Shown here in pieces: positions 18,158 to 30,315 of a DNA stretch of 64,000 nt; within the stretch, counting starts at the first letter, position 1; the number at the start of each line of letters is the position of its first letter. The stretch lies in NCBI RefSeq assembly GCF_013128195.2, contig NZ_CP053452.2, positions 7,874,001-7,938,000 of the forward strand, given 5' to 3'. Made by a program: the position numbers and the translations under genes. This DNA comes from Frigoriglobus tundricola. Lineage in GTDB: Bacteria > Planctomycetota > Planctomycetia > Gemmatales > Gemmataceae. The notes below the pieces were generated by a model. It was not told the DNA's origin, did not search any database, and was given only the letters and a program-made list of their open reading frames with translations.

Positions 18158-21100
18158 ATGACCCGGCCCGCGCGCTTCATCCAACTGGCTCTGAGCCGTG
18201 ACCGGAGCACGGGTACTCCTCCGGCCGATACGGATCTGCTCCGTCGGTACGCGGTCGAACGGGACGAGGCCGCGTTCACCGAACTCGTCCGCCGGAACGG
18301 GCCACTCGTTCTGCGTGCCTGCCGACACATACTCGGAGAGGCTCACGCGGACGATGCCTTCCAAACCGTGTTCCTGCTCCTGGCGCGATCCGCCGACCGC
18401 CTGACGCGTACCGGGGCACTGGCCGGGGTGGTTGCACGCCGCGGCCGTTCGGATCGCGCAACGCGCGCGCGGCGAGGACCGACGGCGCCAGCGTGAGGCG
18501 GCCCGGCCCGTGCCGCCGGCAGCCGACGAGCGGACCTGGAACGAGGTCCGAGAAATTCTGGATGCCGAGATCGCGGCGTTACCGGAGCGCTACCGGTTGC
18601 CCCTGGTTCTGTGTTACCTCCAGGACGCGACCCACGATGAGGCGGCCCGGCAAATCGGCTGCCCGGTCGGCGTGCTGCGCGGGCGCCTCGACCGGGGCCG
18701 CGAGCGGCTCCGCCGGAGGCTGGCGCGGTACGGTCTGCCGCTGGCGGCTCCGATCCTGGTTGTCGGAGTCCCGTCGCCGGTGCCCGCCGCACTCGCGGCG
18801 CGCACCGTCCTTGTCGCGATGACGCGCGCGGAAACGGCCCCATCCGCTCTTGTTGCTTTTGGGCGTCTGGCCCTTCGGTGGCGAGCGGTATCTGTCGCTC
18901 CCGTCGTTGCCCTAGTGGCCTTCGCAATTGGCGCTGCCATTCAGCCGAACGACGCCCCGCCCGCATCGGCCCCACTACCGCACGCTCCGGGGGCCGTCAC
19001 GGCGGCGCCAGAACCCGCGGTCGATGCGCTCGGAGACCCGCTCCCGCCCGGGGCCATTGCCCGGCTCGGATCAGCCCGCTTTCATCACGGGGACAACGTC
19101 CAGCGGGTGATCGTCGGCGCGGACGGGAAACTGGTCGCGTCTGAAGCGTGGGGCTACAAGATGTGGGCCGCGGACACGGGGAAAGCGGTCCCGCTCTGGG
19201 GCGGGCTGAAGAAGCGCGTCCTTGAAGGCGACTGGGTCGTGCTCGTGCCCGCCGGCGAGGGGCTGGCCGCAGTCGTACAAGAGCAAACCGGCACTCGGCT
19301 CGTCGATCCGACTACCGGCGCACGGCTCCGGACACTTCCCCCGATCAAACCCTTTCCGCTGACGCCCGGCATCGCTCCGAACGGAAAGACCCTCGTTGCG
19401 GTCCATCAAGTGCGGGCGCCTGGAGATAACCGGTCCACCCTGCGCGTGTGGGACGCCGGCACGGAACAGTGGACCGACCTCGACCGTGCGCCCGGCAACC
19501 CGCACCAGAACGCATTCTATTTCTCGGCCGACTCCAAGACCCTCGCTTACCACATGCTCGACGGCGCGGTTGACGTCTGGGACCTGTCCGCGGGCAAATG
19601 CGTGTTGCGGCTTCCGGCGACCCGGCCGCAAGCACTGGAGCCCGTCGCCCTCTCAGCGGACGGGGGGCTCCTCGCGCGGCACGCGGCGGCGAAGCTCCAG
19701 GTCTGGAACGTCAAGACGGGGAAAGAGCTGCCCGCGATGGCCGATCCGCCGGAGCTGTTTGGGTACGGAGAGTTGGCGTTCTCGCCCGATAGCAAAGTTC
19801 TCGTTGGGACCAAGGATCAATTCACCATCCGGCTCTGGGACGTGGTCGCGGGAAAAAAACTGAGGGACATCTCAAGCCACAGCAGCATGTTGAGGAGCGT
19901 CGTCCTCAGCAGCGATGGGAAGAGATTGTATGCGGCGGACGGGAACGGGGTGTGTGTTTGGGACCCGGCGACCGGAAAGCCGCTCGACGACACCGGCGGG
20001 CACCGTTACACGATCGCCGCCGCGGCGTGGTCCCCGGACGGAAAGCAATTAGTGTCTGGCGGGGGGTACACCGATAACATCGCGCGGGTGTGGGACCCGA
20101 ACACCGGGCGCAAGATGAGTGAACTCGTGGGACACAAGTCCGGTGTCGAGAGTGTCGCTTACAGCCCCGACGGCGCGGTGCTAGCCACCGGCAGCCAGGA
20201 CGGAACCGCCCGCCTGTGGGACCCGACCACAGGAAAAGAGTTGCACTCGTTCGCTGCCAGAGATGGGATGGTGTACGCGCTCGCCTTCACGCCGGACGGG
20301 CGGTTCCTGGTCACCGGCGGGCGGAAGGCCCTGCACGTGTGGGACGTGGCCGAGCGCAAGGAAGCGCGATCCCTTCCGACCACAGGGCTACTGGTGACCC
20401 AGATCACGTTCCTCCGAGGCAACCGGTCGGTATTGGTACTCGACAACAAGAGCGGAGCCCGTCTGATTGACTTCGCCACCGGGCGTGAGGACGTACAACC
20501 GATGGCGGGGGCGGAAGGGAGAGCAGCAATACCCGTTTGGTCCGGCAACGGCCATCTTGCGAATGTCGATATGGACGGGACGACCCATGTGATTGATGCG
20601 TCCACGGGACGAGAAATTCTGGCATTCTCTGGACCGGCTCGTGATCCCGACCAACCACATTACAGGGGCATCATGGGCCTGACCGTAGCACCGGACGGCC
20701 GCACGGTCGCTTTGGCCCACCGCCGCAGCGTGGTGCGGGCACACGAAATCGCGACTGCCGTCGACCGTCTCGGTGAGGTGCGGGTGTACGAGGTCGCCAG
20801 CGGCACCGAACGGTTACGGTTCGCCGGGCACGTCGACGACGTTATGGGCGTGCGGTTCTCCCCGGACGGCACCCGGCTCTGCTCGTTCGCGGCCGATCGC
20901 TCGCTCCTGATCTGGGACGTGACGGGCGCCCGTCTGGCCCCGGCACCCGCGCCATCGGGTGCGGACGCGGCCTGGGCGGATTTGATGTCCGCTGATGCCG
21001 GGAAAGGGTTCGCCGCGATCCGGTCCCTCGTTGCTGATCCGCCTACCGCCCTTCTGTTGGTGAGTGCGGGAGTGAAACCGGCCCCTGCAGCGGACCCCAA

Positions 21101-21452
21101 AGTCGTGGCCGAGTTAATTGCAAAACTGGGCAGCGACGGGTTCGCGGAGCGTGAGGGCGCATCGAAGGAACTTGCCGCGCTCGCACCGACCGCGATCAAG
21201 CAACTACGCGATGCGGCCGGTAAGTCGGACTCGCCCGAGGTGCGTAAGCGGCTCACCGAACTCGTGTTGGGGGCCAGTGGTCCGAAACTTTCGGGCGATC
21301 GCCTGCGGGCGGCACGGGCCGTTGAGATCCTGGAGCGGATCGGCACATCCGAAGCCCAGAAGGTGTTAGCCGGTCTGGCCGCGGGGGCGCCAGGGGCCAT
21401 GTTGACCGAGGACGCGGTGGCCGCCCTCGCCCGAGTGAAACGCAAGAAGTGA
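18158..21452 (+). pseudogene. ECF sigma factor fused to WD40 repeats, broken by one extra G
   Basis: Planctomycete-type fusion of an ECF sigma-70 factor and a WD40 propeller. Translation from the ATG at 18158 (GGAGG at 18145-18149) gives sigma region 2 (DEAAFTELVRRNGPLVLRACR, HADDAFQTVFLLLAR). It then leaves frame at the GGGG run 18425-18428. Removing one G joins it to the frame ending at 21452: LAGWLHAAAVRIAQRARG, sigma region 4 (LPERYRLPLVLCYL, HDEAARQIGCPVGVLRGRLDRGRERLR), a membrane helix (VAPVVALVAFAIGAAI), WD40 repeats and a helical C-terminal domain (ELIAKLGSDGFAEREGASKEL). The repaired product is 1097 residues. Such fusions are thought to link envelope sensing to transcription. It ends one base before the convergent TauE gene. 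Confidence 0.88.
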
Positions 21453-22356: not shown

Positions 22357-23625
22357 ATGCGCTATCCCGTCCTCGTCTCGCTCGTCCTCTGCGCACTCGC
22401 TGTCGGGTCGGCCGCTGAGCCCCCGACCGGAGGCGCGCCGAAAACCATCGTCGTTTCGGAAAAGGCGCTCGCCATCCACCGCGAGGCGCTCCTCATTGAC
22501 GGCCACAACGACCTGCCGTGGGCGCTCCGCGAGACCGACGGCCCCGGTTTCACGTCCGTCGACCTCAACAAGCCGCAGAAGCGGTTCCACACCGACATCG
22601 CCCGGCTGAAGAAGGGCAACCTCGGCGCCCAGTTCTGGAGCGCGTACGTGCCCGTCGATTACGCCCGCAAGGGCACCGCGGTGAAGGTCACTCTCGAACA
22701 GATCGACGTGGTCCACGAACTCGCCCGCCGCTACCCCGATGCCTTTGAAATGGCCTATAGCACCGAAGACATTCTCCGGGTCCGTAAGGGCGGCAAGATC
22801 GCGTCCCTCATCGGCATCGAGGGCGGCCAGGCCATCGACAACTCGCTGGCCCTGTTGCGCTGCTACTACAAGCTCGGCGTGCGGTACATGACGCTCACCC
22901 ACTCGGAGTCGCTCGACTGGGCCGACTCGTGCTCCGACGAGCCGAGGGCCAACGGCCTCACGCCGTTCGGCGTGAGTGTGGTTCACGAAATGAACCGGCT
23001 CGGCATGCTCGTCGATCTGTCACACGTGTCGCCCGACACGATGCGGGCCGCTCTGAAGGCCACGAAGGCGCCGGTCATCTTCTCGCACTCGTCCGCCCGT
23101 GGCGTAGCCGATCACGTGCGGAACGTGCCGGACGACGTGCTGAAGCTGGTGAAGGAGAACCGCGGCGTGGTGATGGTCAACTTCTTCAGCGGCTTCGTCA
23201 ACCCGGACGGCGCGCGGGCCATGAAGCTCATGTTCGAGAAGGGCCGCGAACTGAAGAAGCAGTTCCCCAACGACGACGCCAAGTACCGGGACGCGTTCCG
23301 GGCGTGGGCGAAAGAGAACGACTACCCGGCCGGCGACGTGGGCCAGATCGTCGACCACATCGACCACATCGTGAAAGTCGCGGGCACCGACCACGTCGGC
23401 ATCGGCTCGGACTTCGACGGCGTGCCGAAGCTGCCGAAGCAGATGGACGACGTCTCCTGCTACCCGCTGCTCACGCAGATCATGCTCGACCGCGGGTACA
23501 CGAAGGAGCAGATCCACAAGGTGCTCGGCGGGAACCTGATGCGGGTGTTCGCCGACGCCGAGAAGGTGAGCCGCGACTGGACCGCGCCGGCAGCGGCGGA
23601 TCGGGCGCCCGGGGCGCGGCCATGA
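22357..23625 (+). CDS. membrane dipeptidase (peptidase M19)
   Basis: Renal-dipeptidase-type metallopeptidase of 422 residues that would hydrolyse dipeptides, including D-amino-acid ones, in the periplasm. The ATG at 22357 gives a signal peptide ([20 protein letters not shown]). Zinc-ligand motifs of the family are in order: [47 protein letters not shown] and GIGSDFDGV. The last residues end [13 protein letters not shown], as usual, with a short Ala/Pro tail. Its TGA overlaps the ATG of the next gene (ATGA at 23622-23625), so it is translationally coupled to the oxidoreductase-CutC gene. Confidence 0.95.
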
Positions 23626-25463
23626 CCCCGCGGGTCGCGATCATCGGCGGGGGGCTGGCGGGACTGACCGCCGCGCACCGGCTGCTGGCGCGAAACATTG
23701 AAGTCACGGTGATCGACAAGGGGCGGCACGGTGGCGGTCGGATGTGCACGCGCCCGGTGGTGCTCCCGGACGGGCGCACCGCCCGGTTCGACCTGGGACC
23801 GCCGCTCCTGTACACGCGGGTGCCGGGCGATCCAGGCGCGACGGCGCACCGCGTGATCGATCTCGACAACGAGCTCCCTGGCCCGTCCCTGTTCACGTCG
23901 CGTCCGGTCGGCCGGATCGGCGCGCCGGGCGAGGGGGCCGGCCCCGCGCCGATCACGGGCCTCACCACGACCGGCGGAATGCGCGAACTCCCGTTCCGCC
24001 TCATCGCAGCCGCGAGCGGCGCGCTCCACTTTCAGGATCACACGCTCGTTGAGCGGCTGGAACGCACCGAACTCGGGTGGCGCGTTCACACTCGATCGCT
24101 CCGCGACGGGTTCGAGTCGGTCGCGAGCGCGAACGCCCTGATCCTCACACCGCCGGTGCCCCAGACACTCGAGCTCCTTCAGAACAGCAACATCGCCCTA
24201 CCCGATGCGCTCCGCGACGACCTGCGGGGCGTGGCGTATTCGCGGTGCATCGCCGTTTACGGCACGTTCGATCCGGTGGAACCGCTCCACCCCGGCGGCG
24301 TGTGGCTGGGCGACGGACCCGTCGAGTGGATCTGCGATAATCACCGGAAGGACGTGTCCGCCGTTCCGGGATCGATCACGGCGCTGACGTCACCGGCGTG
24401 GGCCGAGGAGCACTGGGACGTCCCGGACGAACTCCTCCTGGAACTGCTCCTACCGCGCCTGAGCGCCTGGGTCGGGAGCCCGACAGGTCCCGGGAGCGTC
24501 TGGGTTCACCGGTGGAGGTGGGCGCGGCCGGTCTCACCGGTTCGGGCGCCCTGTGCGGTCCTCCGCGACCACGCCGCGGTACTCGCCGGTGACGGTTTCG
24601 CGGGCCAGCACGCGGACGCGGTCGATGCGGCGGTCACGTCCGGCGAGGCCGCCGCGCACCGCACGGGCGGGTTGCTCACCGCCCTGGCGCGTCGGGACAC
24701 CCGCTATTCCGTCCCTCGTCCGCCGAGATACACGCTCGAGATCGCCGTTTCCACGCCGGCGGAAGCCGCGCTCGCGGTCCGCGCCGGCGCCGACCGGTTG
24801 GAACTGTCGTGCGCCCTGGAGGTCGGTGGGCTGACGCCGTCGATCGGGCTGTTTCGGGCGGTCCGCGAGTGGGTGGAGGTGCCGGTGTACGTGATGCTCC
24901 GGCCGCGCGCCGGCGGCTTCATGTACCGGCACAGCGAACTCGAAATCATGTGGGCGGACGCGGAGGCGTTCCTGTCGGAAGGGGCCAGCGGCATCGTATT
25001 CGCCGCCTTGAAAGACGACGGGGCCATCGATCACGTGCGCTGTCGCCAGTTCGTCGAACGGGCGGACGGCAAGGCCGTATTTCACCGCGCGTTCGACTTT
25101 CTCTCCGACCCGCTCGCCGCCCTCGACGAACTGATCGAACTCGGGTTCGAGCGCGTGCTGACGAGCGGCGGGGCGAGTACGGCCGAGACCGGAACGAACC
25201 GCCTGGCGGCGCTCGTTCAGCACGCGGGCTGGCAGATCGAGGTGCTACCGGCGGGTAGCGTCCGGCCGCACAACGTGGCCGACCTCGTCCGCACGACGCG
25301 GTGCGATCAGGTGCACTCCGCGGCCCGGGTGCCGGCGGACGATCCGCTCCTGTCGGCGCACCCGCGGCTCGCGCGGGGGCTCGGCGCGCCGGGCGAGTTG
25401 GACGAGCGACTCGTCCGCGGCCTGCGGCACGAACTCGACCGGCTGGCCGGGTCGCTATCATGA
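23622..25463 (+). CDS. fusion of FAD-dependent oxidoreductase (renalase-like) and CutC
   Basis: 613-residue protein in one uninterrupted frame with two unrelated halves. Residues 1-360 are an FAD/NAD(P)-binding amine-oxidase/renalase-like domain: dinucleotide-binding [26 protein letters not shown], and a C-terminal FAD-contact segment [27 protein letters not shown]. From about residue 368 the sequence is a CutC family protein (TIM barrel linked to copper homeostasis): [69 protein letters not shown]. No ATG or good alternative start lies at the boundary. Start and stop both overlap neighbours by ATGA. It may be a natural fusion, or two genes joined by an indel such as those seen elsewhere in the window. 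Confidence 0.85.
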
Positions 25464-26773
25464 CCGGCATGGCCGTTGACCCGCCGCTGGAAGGCTTTCT
25501 CAACACCGTCCGCCGCAGCCGGCTGTTCGACCCAGCCGACCTCGACCGCCTCGCGGCGCGGTTGCGCCCCGCTTCGGCACGCCAGTTCGCCGACGGACTC
25601 GTCCGCAGCGGCGAGCTCACGCACTACCAGGCCGACAAGCTCCTGAACGGCCGCTGGCAGGGGCTCGTTATCGGCCCGTACAGCATCCTCGCCCCGCTCG
25701 GCCGCGGCGGCATGGGGACCATCGTCTACCTCGCCCACGACCGGCGCATGGCCGAGGCGCTGGGCGATTCGGTGCTGGTCGCGCTCAAGCTCCTGCCGCA
25801 CCGCAAGGCCGAAGCGGACCCGAAGGTGCTGGCCCGGTTCCGCCGCGAGATGGTGTTCGGGTACCGGGTGAAGCACCCGAACGTGGTCCGGACGTTCGCG
25901 GCCGGCGACCTAGACTCCGTTCACTACCTCGCACTCGAGTACGTGCCCGGCAAGACGATCCGCCAACTGGTGAACGAGAGCGGACCCCTCGAAGTGGGGG
26001 ACGCCGCCCGGATCTTTGCTGACGTGGCCGCCGGGCTGGCCCACATCCACGCGGCCGGTCTCGTCCACCGCGACGTGAAACCGGCCAACGTGATCGTCCG
26101 CCCCGACGGGCGCGCGGTCCTCGTCGATCTCGGTCTCGCGTTCGCACCAAAGGAGCCGCTCCCCGACGATCCGGCCATCGCCGGGGGCAAGGGGTACGTC
26201 CTCGGCACGATGGATTACCTGGCCCCCGAACAGGCGCGGGACGCCACGGGGGTCGGGCCGGCCGCCGACCTCTACGGGTTAGGATGTGCGCTGTATTTCG
26301 CGCTGACGGGTGCGCCGCCGTTCCCCGCCGAGGGCACCAAACGGAAGATCCACCGGCACCGACACGACCCGCCGCCGCTCATTCCGCACGGCCCCCCGGA
26401 GTTCGCACAGTTGGTGTCTGCACTCATGGCGAAGGAGCCCGCCGGGCGCCCGAAGAGCGCTGCGAAGGTGAGCGACCGGCTCCGGGCGTGGGCGAAGCCG
26501 GCCCGCCCCCGCCCGGGGACCGATGCGGTCGCCGCGGTCGATGCTCCGGGACTGGACGCGGACCTCTGGGAGGTCACCCCGGGTGAAGAACTGGCCGGAG
26601 CGGACCGGTCCCCAGACGAGAAACCGTTTGAGGAGTTGGAAGAGAGCGCCGCCGGCAAACGAGCGGCGCGCCCGGACCCGTCGGCCGGGGCCCTCGTCGG
26701 CTGGCTCCTGGTGGCGGGTCTTGTCGGGCTGATGGGGCTCATTCTGCTCGTGGCGGTGCTCCGCCGGTTGTGA
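25460..26773 (+). CDS. serine/threonine protein kinase with C-terminal membrane anchor
   Basis: Hanks-type kinase of 437 residues. A short N-terminal segment typical of planctomycete kinases (SGELTHYQADKLLNGRWQGLVIGPYSIL) precedes the kinase domain: Gly-loop LGRGGMGTIVYLA (80-92), VALK with Lys110, Glu130, catalytic HRDVKPAN (203-210). The metal-binding motif is DLG at 223-225 instead of DFG, and APEQ follows as activation-segment end. A Pro/acidic linker leads to one membrane helix at the very C-terminus (GWLLVAGLVGLMGLILLVAVL), so the kinase domain is cytoplasmic. The ATG at 25460 overlaps the stop of the CutC fusion; a second ATG at 25469 is possible. Coupling to dipeptidase and CutC genes suggests cotranscription. 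Confidence 0.93.
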   Translation: MTGMAVDPPLEGFLNTVRRSRLFDPADLDRLAARLRPASARQFADGLVRSGELTHYQADKLLNGRWQGLVIGPYSILAPLGRGGMGTIVYLAHDRRMAEALGDSVLVALKLLPHRKAEADPKVLARFRREMVFGYRVKHPNVVRTFAAGDLDSVHYLALEYVPGKTIRQLVNESGPLEVGDAARIFADVAAGLAHIHAAGLVHRDVKPANVIVRPDGRAVLVDLGLAFAPKEPLPDDPAIAGGKGYVLGTMDYLAPEQARDATGVGPAADLYGLGCALYFALTGAPPFPAEGTKRKIHRHRHDPPPLIPHGPPEFAQLVSALMAKEPAGRPKSAAKVSDRLRAWAKPARPRPGTDAVAAVDAPGLDADLWEVTPGEELAGADRSPDEKPFEELEESAAGKRAARPDPSAGALVGWLLVAGLVGLMGLILLVAVLRRL

Positions 26774-26819: not shown

Positions 26820-27383
26820 ATGCAGAAAGTGAAGTACTACAAGCGGCACCGAATGGAACTGCCGCTCCGCCACCCGCCCCGGCCGGCAGAGCTGCCAACG
26901 GGGTTCCGGTGGGTGCCGTGGGACGAGAGCCTGCTCGCGCTCCACGCGGAGATCAAGTTTCTCAGCTTCCAGGGCCACGAAGACGCGCTCGTCTTCCCGA
27001 GCCTGGGGTCCCGCGCGGGGTGCCGCGATCTGATGGCCGCGATCCGCTGCCGGCCCGGTTTCTGCCCGCAGGCGACGTGGCTGATTGCAGGGGCGGACGG
27101 GTGCGTGGGCACCATTCAGGGGCTGCGCGACGATATCGGGTTCGGCGGGATCCAGAACCTCGGCGTGGTGCCGGAATACCGCGGGTTGGGGCTCGGCCGG
27201 GCGCTCCTGATGCAGGCGCTGGTCGGGTTCGCGGCGGTCGGCGCGCCGCGGGCGTTTCTCGAAGTCACCGCGACGAACGAACCGGCGGTGCGCATGTACC
27301 GGAGCGTCGGCTTTCGCGCGTACAAAACGTTGTACCGGGCCGTGGAATTGCCGCACCCGGACGCGGTCGGCGTTGGGCAGTGA
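26820..27383 (+). CDS. GNAT family N-acetyltransferase
   Basis: 187-residue acetyltransferase. The acetyl-CoA-binding motif A is seen as NLGVVPEYRGLGLGRALL, followed by the motif B helix and NEPAVRMYRSVGFRAYKTLYR, the usual C-terminal strand. The basic N-terminus (MQKVKYYKRHRMELPL) and WLIAGADGCVGTIQGLRDDIGFGGIQNL fit the fold. The substrate is unknown. It lies 46 bases after the kinase gene and 130 bases before the M16 gene, all on +. Confidence 0.92.
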   Translation: MQKVKYYKRHRMELPLRHPPRPAELPTGFRWVPWDESLLALHAEIKFLSFQGHEDALVFPSLGSRAGCRDLMAAIRCRPGFCPQATWLIAGADGCVGTIQGLRDDIGFGGIQNLGVVPEYRGLGLGRALLMQALVGFAAVGAPRAFLEVTATNEPAVRMYRSVGFRAYKTLYRAVELPHPDAVGVGQ

Positions 27384-27512
27384 CACTCCCGTCCGTAGAA
27401 TGCGGACGTGGCACGCCGTGATCGAACGGCCTTCGCGCTCTGGTTCCGCGGCCCATCAAGAGTCGCCGGGCCGGTTCCGTCCGCGCCGCTCCAGTACGAA
27501 CAGGTGAATCGC

Positions 27513-28748
27513 GTGGGACAACAGGTCTACCAGCACACCCTGTCCAACGGCCTCGTGTTGCTCGCCGAACGGATGGACCACGTGCGGTCGGCGGCGATCA
27601 ACTTCCTGGTTCCGGCCGGGTCGGCCTTTGATCCGCCGGGGCAACTGGGCGTCGCCAGCGTGCTGGCCGAGATGATCACCCGCGGCGCCGGTGAGCGCGA
27701 CAGCCGCGACCTCTCCCTCGCCCTCGACAACCTCGGCGTGGACCGGGACGAGAGCGTCGGCGCGGTGAACATGCGGTTCTGGGGCTCGACCCTCGCCCGC
27801 AACGTGCCGGCGGCCCTCGACATCTACGCCGACATCGTCCTCCGGCCGCACCTGCCGGACGCGGAACTGGAACCGGTTCAGGCGCTGGCGCTCCAAGACA
27901 TTCAGAGCCTCGAAGACTCCCCGCAGACGAAGGTGATGGTCGAACTGCGGCGCCGCTACTACCCGGCGCCGATCAACAAGGACCGGCGCGGCGTGGCCGA
28001 GGACATCGAGGCCCTCACCATCGACGCGGTGCGGGTCCACTTCCGCCGGTTCGTGCGGCCGAACGGGGCGATCCTCTCCGTGGCCGGCAACATCGAGTGG
28101 GAGCCGCTCAAGGCCCAGGTGGAGCGCCTCTTCGCTCGCTGGGAGCCGGGTTCCGGCGCCGAGGTCCGACCCGAGCCGCACACCGCGGCGTCCGCGCACA
28201 TTCACAAGGACACGCAGCAGACGCAGATCGCGCTCGCGTTCCCGAGCGTGCCGGTCACCGACCCGGACTACTACAACGCCCGCGCCGCGGCGTCGGTGCT
28301 GTCCGGCGGGATGAGTTCGCGCCTCTTCACCGAGGTGCGCGAGAAGCGCGGGCTGTGCTACTCGGTGTACGCGTTCCACGAGACGTTCAAAACCCAGGGC
28401 ACCATGCTCGCCTACGCCGGGACGCGGGCCGAGCGGGCACAAGAAACGCTCGACGTGACGCTGGCCGAACTGAAGCGCCTCAAGGACGGCATCGAGGCCG
28501 ACGAGATCGACCGCGTGAAGGCGGGGCTGAAGTCCTCGCTCATCATGCAGGAGGAGTCCACCGGGGCGCGGGCCGGGGCGATCGCGACCGACTGGTACTA
28601 TCTCGAGCGCGTCCGCTCGTTCGATGAGATCCAGGCCATCATCGACGGCCTGACGCCCGATTCCGTCCTCGGCTATTTGAACCGCTGCCCGGTGCGCGAC
28701 GTGACGCTCGTCACGCTCGGCCCGGCCCCGCTGACGCTGCCCGGGTGA
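27513..28748 (+). CDS. M16 peptidase subunit lacking the zinc motif (R/Y half)
   Basis: 411-residue insulinase-type (M16) protein. The start chosen is GTG 27513 (GQQVYQHTLSNGLVLLAERM), with AGGTGA at 27502-27507; GTG 27408 or 27504 are possible longer starts. Where active M16 proteins carry HxxEH this one has GVASVLAEMITRGAG, with no histidine, so it cannot bind the catalytic zinc. The C-terminal half keeps the substrate-binding Arg/Tyr region SSRLFTEVREKRGLCYSVYAFHE. The sister gene at 29062 has the opposite arrangement. In characterised bacterial M16B heterodimers one subunit supplies zinc and the other the R/Y pair, so these two probably form one enzyme. Confidence 0.92.
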   Translation: MGQQVYQHTLSNGLVLLAERMDHVRSAAINFLVPAGSAFDPPGQLGVASVLAEMITRGAGERDSRDLSLALDNLGVDRDESVGAVNMRFWGSTLARNVPAALDIYADIVLRPHLPDAELEPVQALALQDIQSLEDSPQTKVMVELRRRYYPAPINKDRRGVAEDIEALTIDAVRVHFRRFVRPNGAILSVAGNIEWEPLKAQVERLFARWEPGSGAEVRPEPHTAASAHIHKDTQQTQIALAFPSVPVTDPDYYNARAAASVLSGGMSSRLFTEVREKRGLCYSVYAFHETFKTQGTMLAYAGTRAERAQETLDVTLAELKRLKDGIEADEIDRVKAGLKSSLIMQEESTGARAGAIATDWYYLERVRSFDEIQAIIDGLTPDSVLGYLNRCPVRDVTLVTLGPAPLTLPG

Positions 28749-29008: not shown

Positions 29009-29061
29009 GACACGCCGGGCCGGACCACATACAAGTTGCCGCCCCCGCCTTGAGGGTTCGT

Positions 29062-30315
29062 ATGCCTTTTCACACGCACAAGCTGCCCAACGGCCTGCAA
29101 CTGATCGGCGAGACCAGCCCGTCGGCGCGGTCGGCCGCGGTCGGGTTCTTCGTCCGCACCGGGTCGCGCGACGAGACCCCGGCCGAGTCCGGCGTGTCGC
29201 ACTTCCTCGAACACATGATGTTCAAGGGCACGCCGCGGCGCACCGCGTTCGACGTGAACCTCGACTTCGACCGGATCGGGGCGAGCTACAACGCGTACAC
29301 GAGCGAAGAGAACACCGTGTACTACGCGGCGCTCCTGCCGGAGTACCTGCCGCGGGGGATCGACATCCTCGCGGACATCCTGCGGCCGAGCCTGCGCGAC
29401 GAGGACTTCACGACCGAAAAGAACGTGATCCTCGAAGAGATCGACATGTACGAGGACCAGCCGGGGTCGGTCGCGTGGGACCGCGCCCGGCGGATCTACT
29501 ACGGGACCCACCCGCTCGGCAACTCGGTCCTCGGCACGAAGGAGAGCGTCGGGGCGCTGACCCGCGACCAGATGCACGCGTACTTCTCCCGGCGGTACGC
29601 GGCGAACAACATCGTCGTCTCGGCCGCGGGGAACTACGACTGGAACACGTTCGTTCGGCTCATCACCGACGCCTGTTCGGGGTGGAACACGGACACCGTG
29701 GGCCGCGAGAACCGGACCGAGTGGCCCGGGACCGGCGGCCGGCACCTGCTCACCCGCGAGAAGGTGCAGCAGGAGTACGTGATGTTCATGGGCGGCGGGC
29801 CGCCGGCGCACTCGAAGATGCGCTACGCGGCCGACACGCTCGCGCTGGCCGTCGGCGACGACTCCGGCAGCCGGCTGTACTGGGCACTGGTCGATCCCGG
29901 CCACGCGGACTCGGCCGATTGCAGCTACGTGGAGAACGACGGCAGCGGGGCCGTGTACGCGTCGCTCAGTTGCGAGCCGGAGCACACCGAGGAGAACACC
30001 GCGAAGGTGCTCGAGGTGTTCGCGGGCGTTCAAACGGGCGGGATCACCGAGGCCGAACTGCATCAAGCGAAGAGCAAGATCCTCTCGCGCGTGGTCCGCG
30101 GGAGCGAGAAGCCGATGGGGCGGATGCAGGCGATCGCGGCCGCGTGGTCGTACACCGGCGAGTACCGCGACGTGGACACCGAACTCGCGAACTTCGAGGC
30201 GGTGACGCTCGCCGACGTCCGCGCGTACCTGGACGCCTACCCGATCGACCGCACCACCGTCGTCGCCTTCGGCCCGCTCAAGGAGATGACGGGGCTCGAA
30301 GGCAAAGTGGTGTGA
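29062..30315 (+). CDS. M16 zinc peptidase subunit with HxxEH motif
   Basis: 417-residue insulinase-family metallopeptidase. The ATG at 29062 (MPFHTHKLPNGLQLIGE) is preferred over TTG 29050. The inverted zinc motif HFLEHM (within ESGVSHFLEHMMFKGTPRR) and the downstream glutamate ligand region (TTEKNVILEEIDMYED) are present, so this is the catalytic half. The segment that carries the substrate-binding Arg/Tyr pair in other M16 proteins is altered here (SGSRLYWALVDPGHADSADCSY). That complements the upstream M16 subunit, which has R/Y but no zinc site. The two genes plus the small membrane protein between them look like an operon. Confidence 0.95.
   Translation: MPFHTHKLPNGLQLIGETSPSARSAAVGFFVRTGSRDETPAESGVSHFLEHMMFKGTPRRTAFDVNLDFDRIGASYNAYTSEENTVYYAALLPEYLPRGIDILADILRPSLRDEDFTTEKNVILEEIDMYEDQPGSVAWDRARRIYYGTHPLGNSVLGTKESVGALTRDQMHAYFSRRYAANNIVVSAAGNYDWNTFVRLITDACSGWNTDTVGRENRTEWPGTGGRHLLTREKVQQEYVMFMGGGPPAHSKMRYAADTLALAVGDDSGSRLYWALVDPGHADSADCSYVENDGSGAVYASLSCEPEHTEENTAKVLEVFAGVQTGGITEAELHQAKSKILSRVVRGSEKPMGRMQAIAAAWSYTGEYRDVDTELANFEAVTLADVRAYLDAYPIDRTTVVAFGPLKEMTGLEGKVV

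What the first reader, a model, noticed from the sequence alone, without database searches (positions are those of the whole stretch)
23622..25463. FAD-oxidoreductase fused to CutC
One open frame joins a renalase-like flavoprotein to a complete CutC domain, and no start codon exists at the join. I know of no described protein of this kind. The frame is linked by ATGA overlaps to a dipeptidase and a Ser/Thr kinase gene, so it may be a real enzyme combining oxidation and copper- or sugar-related chemistry. Because other genes here are indel-affected, the fusion could be artefactual.
Basis: partly seen in the sequence, partly recalled or inferred. Interest (0 to 1): 0.55.

Follow-up and report, generated by a model that had tools for sequence, protein, structure and literature searches.

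The report
Conserved renalase-like–CutC fusion protein
A Gemmata-group bacterium makes one protein that joins a renalase-type flavin enzyme to a CutC barrel; the join is real and shared by relatives, but what the combined enzyme does is still unknown.

Summary
The frame at 23622-25463 encodes one 613-residue protein: an N-terminal FAD domain (residues 1-~356) whose nearest solved relatives are renalases, and a complete C-terminal CutC barrel (~370-613). It is no indel artefact. The fusion, with no stop across the join, is in 14 of 19 genomes of the window's genus and 1 of 6 of a second genus. It was not seen in the listed matches of at least 302 class genomes outside the family, nor in 391 other phylum genomes at E 1e-60. 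Both domains and the linker are under purifying selection. In 12 of 12 type A loci it stands between an M19 dipeptidase and a Ser/Thr kinase, mostly with RTGA overlaps. Relatives carry a solo cutC at the same place. Trees favour one fusion, a duplication, and later loss of the FAD half. The human CutC copper-site cysteines (numbering recalled) are replaced, while the most conserved family residues stay. Best reading: a lineage-specific bifunctional redox/CutC enzyme, not a copper protein; substrate unknown. New domain pairing of two known families.

The parts
23622..25463 (+). Fusion gene, 613 aa: renalase-like FAD domain + CutC TIM barrel
23622..24689 (+). Renalase-like FAD domain, residues 1-356 (GGGLAGL dinucleotide motif, residues 9-15)
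   Evidence: profile to 3qj4 E 4e-19 and 4zcc 6.1e-19; VIA Z 33.1 to 4zcc, model 3-356
24690..24731 (+). Inter-domain linker, residues 357-370; in the model a helix 333-358 runs into it
   Evidence: dN/dS 0.05-0.23 over a 19-codon stretch, 7 pairs
24732..25460 (+). CutC domain, residues 371-613
   Evidence: PF03932 E 4.1e-58; human CutC 3iwp, profile E 6.4e-71
24672..24674 (+). In-frame TTG just before the join; not a conserved start
22357..23625 (+). M19 dipeptidase; its stop overlaps the fusion's start (ATGA)
   Evidence: PF01244 E 2.2e-112
25460..26773 (+). Ser/Thr protein kinase; its start overlaps the fusion's stop (ATGA)
   Evidence: PF00069 E 2.3e-37
26820..27383 (+). GNAT acetyltransferase; follows the kinase in 4 of 12 type A loci and in several solo-cutC relatives, so only partly conserved as neighbour
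   Evidence: PF00583 E 1.2e-13
27408..28748 (+). M16 peptidase-like gene; found here in the window, in G020 and in solo-cutC relatives
29050..30315 (+). Second M16 peptidase-like gene; found here in the window, in G020 and in solo-cutC relatives

Best explanation
This is a genuine single-polypeptide, two-domain protein, found only in two genera of the Gemmata family as far as I could search. Shown: the frame, the two domains, conservation, selection, overlap with the neighbours, and the solo-cutC state in relatives. Inferred from trees: a renalase-family FAD domain was fused once to the 5' end of a cutC that already stood between a dipeptidase and a kinase; the fusion duplicated into type A (this locus) and type B, and the FAD half was lost again in G092 and probably in G021. 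Inferred mechanism, not shown: the FAD domain takes a hydride from a small metabolite and passes electrons to O2 or another acceptor, as renalases do with NAD(P)H isomers, and the CutC barrel carries out a non-redox step with its conserved Glu/Arg/His/Asp residues on a linked metabolite; fusion keeps the two at 1:1 and close together. Because CutC persists where the FAD half is gone, CutC is the core activity and the FAD domain an accessory.
For: 14 of 14 fused proteins in A1 read from FAD into CutC without a stop, and so do 16 of 16 join segments. In the listed matches of 95 family genomes and 397 class genomes, those spanning both domains lie only in genera g1 and g37. NG86 dN/dS over 7 pre-chosen type A pairs of 55 possible: FAD 0.20-0.34, linker 0.05-0.23, CutC 0.13-0.30. 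RTGA overlap with the dipeptidase in 11 of 12 type A loci, G018 undetermined. Solo CutC at the same locus in G015, G016, G019, G021, G023, G087, G091, G092. CutC tree, 43 rows: all 16 fused rows lie in one 19-row clade, 99/94*, with solo G092, solo G021 and G024; FAD tree, 40 rows: types A and B together, 93/90. Fold: renalase Z 33.1, rmsd 2.3 over 321 residues; Foldseek human CutC E 4.3e-19. Renalase chemistry: abstract and passages of PMC7660482.
Against: No substrate is shown for either half. Two type A copies (G009, G088) have broken frames inside the FAD half, and G024 holds a decayed type B copy, so the FAD half is dispensable in places. Most solo FAD rows carry Gln in a G-x-Q motif (20 of 24 in one alignment; 3 of 6 further solo rows in A4) and the fusions do not, so renalase activity itself may be changed. 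No FAD gene stands beside cutC elsewhere, so nothing outside this lineage supports a functional link. The fusion may have arisen more than once: by hand count, 1 gain + 2 losses against 3 gains + 1 loss, a narrow margin. The AU test does not force the G021 loss (p 0.455). GNAT and M16 genes do not follow the kinase within about 4 kb in 6 of 12 type A loci, so the wider neighbourhood is not fixed.
Confidence: 0.6

Rival explanations
1. Assembly or sequencing indel: two adjacent genes were joined by a missing or extra base near 24690-24740.
For: Two other type A copies do show frame breaks within the FAD half, so indels occur in this group's data.
Against: 11 type A and 3 type B proteins read through the join, as do the join segments of G009 and G088 type A; the linker is conserved and under purifying selection.
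Confidence: 0.01
2. The fusion is tethering only: two enzymes share one chain because fusing them fixed co-expression or stability, with no shared pathway.
For: FAD half lost in G092 and probably G021, decayed in G024, while cutC goes on in G092 and G021; no adjacency of the two families in 53 other FAD loci.
Against: Kept under purifying selection, in both domains and the linker, in 11 intact type A copies 62-69% identical to the window.
Confidence: 0.3
3. A copper-homeostasis protein in which a flavin reductase reduces Cu(II) for a Cu(I)-binding CutC.
For: The family name; human CUTC binds one Cu+ per monomer weakly, its depletion raises copper sensitivity in cells and in C. elegans, and that review holds that it is involved in Cu homeostasis (PMC11083455, passages).
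Against: The human Cys31/Cys52 positions (numbering recalled) are Ala375 and Ser396; 0 of 16 fused rows have Cys at the first and 2 of 16 at the second, while 33 of 47 solo rows have both. In E. coli the copper sensitivity of cutC mutants was put down to the sRNA MicL (PMC6538781, passages).
Confidence: 0.05

Closest known systems
Renalase family (human renalase 3QJ4; bacterial renalase 4ZCC/3KKJ)
   Same: Full-length match of the FAD domain by profile (E 4e-19, 6.1e-19) and fold (the five renalase rows have Z 31.7-33.1); similar size, FAD dinucleotide motif.
   Different: Fused to CutC; the G-A-Q motif of most solo relatives is G-P-P in all 11 type A rows that cover it; the SKPGR-type loop of many bacterial relatives reads DNxxKxVS-like, close to a loop shared by planctomycete solo FADs.
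CutC family (PF03932; human CUTC 3IWP, Shigella 1TWD)
   Same: Whole barrel, E 4.1e-58, 6.4e-71 to 3iwp with the profile; the family residue in 24 of 24 columns conserved in at least 41 of 43 rows.
   Different: N-terminal FAD domain; both human copper-site cysteine positions substituted, whereas 33 of 47 solo rows keep both.
Solo CutC at the orthologous locus (G091, G092, G021 and others)
   Same: Same dipeptidase and/or kinase neighbours; in G092 and G021 the same RTGA overlap with the dipeptidase.
   Different: No FAD domain.

Membership tests
Renalase | Sequence homology over the full renalase length | tested here: met
   hmmsearch with A2: 3qj4 4-341 E 4e-19; 4zcc 1-350 E 6.1e-19
Renalase | Renalase fold | tested here: met
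   VIA Z 33.1, rmsd 2.3, 321 aligned to 4zcc_D; the next family listed has Z 29.4
Renalase | FAD dinucleotide-binding motif GxGxxG and GGR | tested here: met
   GGGLAGL at 9-15 and GGR at 38-40
Renalase | Oxidation of 1,2- and 1,6-NAD(P)H | not testable with these tools
   activity known from PMC7660482, abstract and passages; needs an assay
CutC | PF03932 match above the curated cut-off | tested here: met
   196.6 bits against 23.3
CutC | Most conserved family columns (E, R, GGxTP, RxR, HRAFD, R, T, G; taken to line the barrel pocket, which was not tested) | tested here: met
   24 columns conserved in at least 41 of 43 rows; the window has the commonest residue in 24 of 24
CutC as a copper-binding protein | Copper-site cysteine pair of human CutC (numbering recalled; not universal, so no condition of CutC membership) | tested here: not met
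   Ala375/Ser396; both Cys in 0 of 16 fused rows and 33 of 47 solo rows
CutC as a copper-binding protein | Role in copper tolerance | not testable with these tools
   needs a deletion mutant; disputed for E. coli, supported for human and worm

The most novel reading that the evidence does not exclude
The fusion is a bifunctional enzyme whose flavin half makes, or removes, the substrate or product of the CutC half, so that it exposes the unknown catalytic reaction of CutC, a family reaching from bacteria to humans and still named for a disputed copper role.
Probability: 0.3. Interest if true: 0.65.

Novelty: new variant of a known kind. Interest (0 to 1): 0.42.

Why it matters
CutC reaches from bacteria to humans, but to my knowledge (recalled) no enzymatic reaction is established for it, and its copper role has been questioned. 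A conserved fusion to an enzyme of known chemical class is a handle: it says which kind of chemistry to test beside CutC, and gives natural single-domain forms (G092, G021) and unfused cutC at the same locus as controls.

Tried and rejected
Artefact by indel: rejected on relatives. Separate translation of CutC from an internal start: no start is conserved; 2 of 16 segments (G010 and its close relative G009/L056) have no ATG/GTG/TTG between the AGD and GGLTP motifs, and the window's TTG position holds TTG in 6 of 16. Copper role: see rivals. 'Asp to Gly in RPRxGDF is special to the fusion': rejected, 18 of 27 solo rows of the tree have Gly there too. 'Gly-Pro-Pro is special to the fusion': not exclusive, the solo FAD of G135 also has it. 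Large open frames around other CutCs: of those printed, G119 and G175 look by eye like spurious high-GC upstream frames, not fusions; those of G104, G125 and G148 were not read. CutC in viral contigs: 48 pattern matches, none confirmed. Literature: 0 held papers have both 'renalase' and 'CutC'; 'CutC' with 'Gemmata' gave 12 papers, 10 listed, none opened, none on this by title. Searches were seen as listings only, apart from the three papers whose passages I read. Tree rows were chosen by hand: 20 distinct solo CutC rows were left out of the CutC tree and later counted for the cysteines only; of the 55 loci nine solo FADs went into the FAD tree.

Full report
Observation. The frame 23622-25463 on the + strand is one open frame of 613 codons. 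It is single-copy in its 9.86 Mb genome: the own-genome DNA search gave this place and one 27-base match. Pfam finds CutC at residues 371-568 (4.1e-58) and a flavin amine-oxidase-type domain before it. By eye no purine-rich ribosome-binding site precedes that TTG (sequence).

Is it real? A six-frame search of 95 genomes of the family gave matches in 75; many are only weak dinucleotide-motif hits, and the list was cut. In the window's own genus (g1, 19 genomes; it holds Gemmata sp. IIL30, because contig G009:C13 and the record in L056 have the same length, 167106, and the same match) the fusion is present in 14: 11 intact type A copies including the window, G009 (type A with frame breaks inside the FAD half but an open join), and type B in G021 and G022. 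G024 holds a decayed type B copy: a frame-broken FAD remnant and a CutC part with an in-frame TGA. G015, G016, G019 and G023 have CutC alone. In g37 (6 genomes) only G088 has the fusion, one type A copy with a broken FAD frame and one type B copy; G087, G089, G091 and G092 have CutC alone, and G090 had no match at 1e-20. Fourteen aligned fused proteins (A1) run through the join without a stop; 16 of 16 join segments do. NG86 dN/dS for 7 pre-chosen pairs, of 55 possible among 11 intact type A genes, is 0.20-0.34 (FAD), 0.05-0.23 (19-codon linker stretch) and 0.13-0.30 (CutC).

How far does it reach? With profile A1 at E <= 1e-20, 155 of 397 class genomes had a match; in the listed matches those spanning both domains were all in genera g1 and g37 (at most 95 of the 397 are of the family). 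In 392 phylum genomes at E <= 1e-60, five matched: the window and four with CutC alone; a weaker, very divergent fusion would be missed at that threshold, and the two samples overlap. Searches centred on other phyla could not be run. Among 55 named loci found by one FAD pattern, two carry CutC beside it: L056 (Gemmata sp. IIL30) and L057 (a Gemmataceae MAG). So restriction to this family is supported for Planctomycetota only.

Locus and history. Twelve of 12 type A loci in g1 have dipeptidase - fusion - kinase; the type A copy of G088 has the dipeptidase but no kinase hit. GNAT follows in 4 of 12 (window, G014, G017, G020); in 6 (G009, G010, G011, G012, G013, G025) it is not within the roughly 4 kb fetched beyond the kinase, and in G018 and G026 the contig ends. 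The dipeptidase stop overlaps the fusion's start as RTGA in 11 of 12; in G011 the GTG lies one codon before the homology start, and in G018 my script did not find the dipeptidase stop. By eye, the fusion's stop overlaps a possible ATG or GTG kinase start in 12 of 12. At the same locus relatives carry solo cutC: G091 with dipeptidase, kinase, GNAT and both M16 genes; G092 with the dipeptidase directly before it (ATGA); G021 likewise (GTGA); G015 with dipeptidase, GNAT and M16; G016 and G023 with kinase, GNAT and M16; G019 with the kinase (contig end); G087 with kinase and GNAT. The CutC tree (43 rows) puts all 16 fused rows in one clade of 19 rows (99/94*), which also contains solo G092 (sister of G088 type A, 100/99*), solo G021 (long branch) and decayed G024. 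Holding the fused rows with G024 apart from all solos is rejected (AU p 0.002), and so is letting in G021 but not G092 (p 0.002); letting in G092 but not G021 is not rejected (p 0.455). The FAD tree (40 rows) joins types A and B (93/90) next to one long branch, G113. The simplest story is one fusion, one duplication, and loss of the FAD half in G092 and probably G021; several fusions cannot be excluded.

What the domains are. The FAD profile finds human renalase (4e-19, positions 4-341) and bacterial renalase (6.1e-19, 1-350) as its best full-length solved relatives. The AlphaFold2 model (17-row alignment of which only three rows cover CutC; mean pLDDT 78.2, pTM 0.76; ten-residue blocks of 42-72 after residue 510) matches renalase with VIA Z 33.1, rmsd 2.3 over 321 residues, and Foldseek gives renalase 1.2e-23 and human CutC 4.3e-19. 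How the two domains face each other was not examined. Among renalases the fusions group with solos that carry a DNxxKGxS-type loop; the G-A-Q motif of most solos (Gln in 20 of 24 solo rows, and in 3 of 6 further ones in A4) is G-P-P in the 11 type A rows that cover it. What that Gln does was not established here. In CutC, 24 columns are conserved in at least 41 of 43 rows and the window has the commonest residue in all 24; the two human copper-site cysteine positions (Cys31 and Cys52 by recall, fitted to the alignment) are Ala375 and Ser396. Both cysteines are kept in 13 of 27 solo rows of the tree and in 20 of 20 solo rows left out of it, and in 0 of 16 fused rows.

Function. Renalases oxidise 1,2- and 1,6-NAD(P)H (PMC7660482, abstract and passages). 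Human CUTC binds Cu+ weakly and is thought not to be a chaperone, though the same review holds it to be involved in copper homeostasis (PMC11083455, passages); E. coli cutC copper sensitivity was put down to MicL (PMC6538781, passages). With the cysteines gone and the most conserved polar residues kept, a catalytic rather than copper role fits the fused CutC better. I propose a bifunctional enzyme, flavin oxidation next to a non-redox CutC step; that the two steps share a metabolite is inference, at about even odds with simple tethering.

Novelty. No held paper contains both 'renalase' and 'CutC', and the CutC-Gemmata listing shows nothing on it by title. Automatic domain databases were not searched. 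I rate it a new variant (new domain pairing) of two known families.

Noticed in passing
window 18432-21452 (+): One 1006-aa frame that looks like a sigma-factor-type region (by eye; recalled, not among the 25 Pfam rows shown) followed by WD40 repeats (Pfam WD40 6.4e-41).
   Followed up: partly
L051 5601-6776 (G024): Decayed type B fusion: frame-broken FAD remnant, then CutC with an in-frame TGA, 63% identical to the G022 copy.
   Followed up: yes
L043 (G009) and L044 (G088): Type A copies with frame breaks inside the FAD half, in or near the same variable stretch (about residues 50-112); draft-assembly error or real decay was not settled.
   Followed up: partly
L047 and L154 (G021): One genome carries a type B fusion and, at the type A locus, a solo cutC coupled to the dipeptidase by GTGA.
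   Followed up: yes
window 25460-26773 (+): The coupled kinase ends in a hydrophobic, probably membrane-spanning segment (by eye).
   Followed up: no
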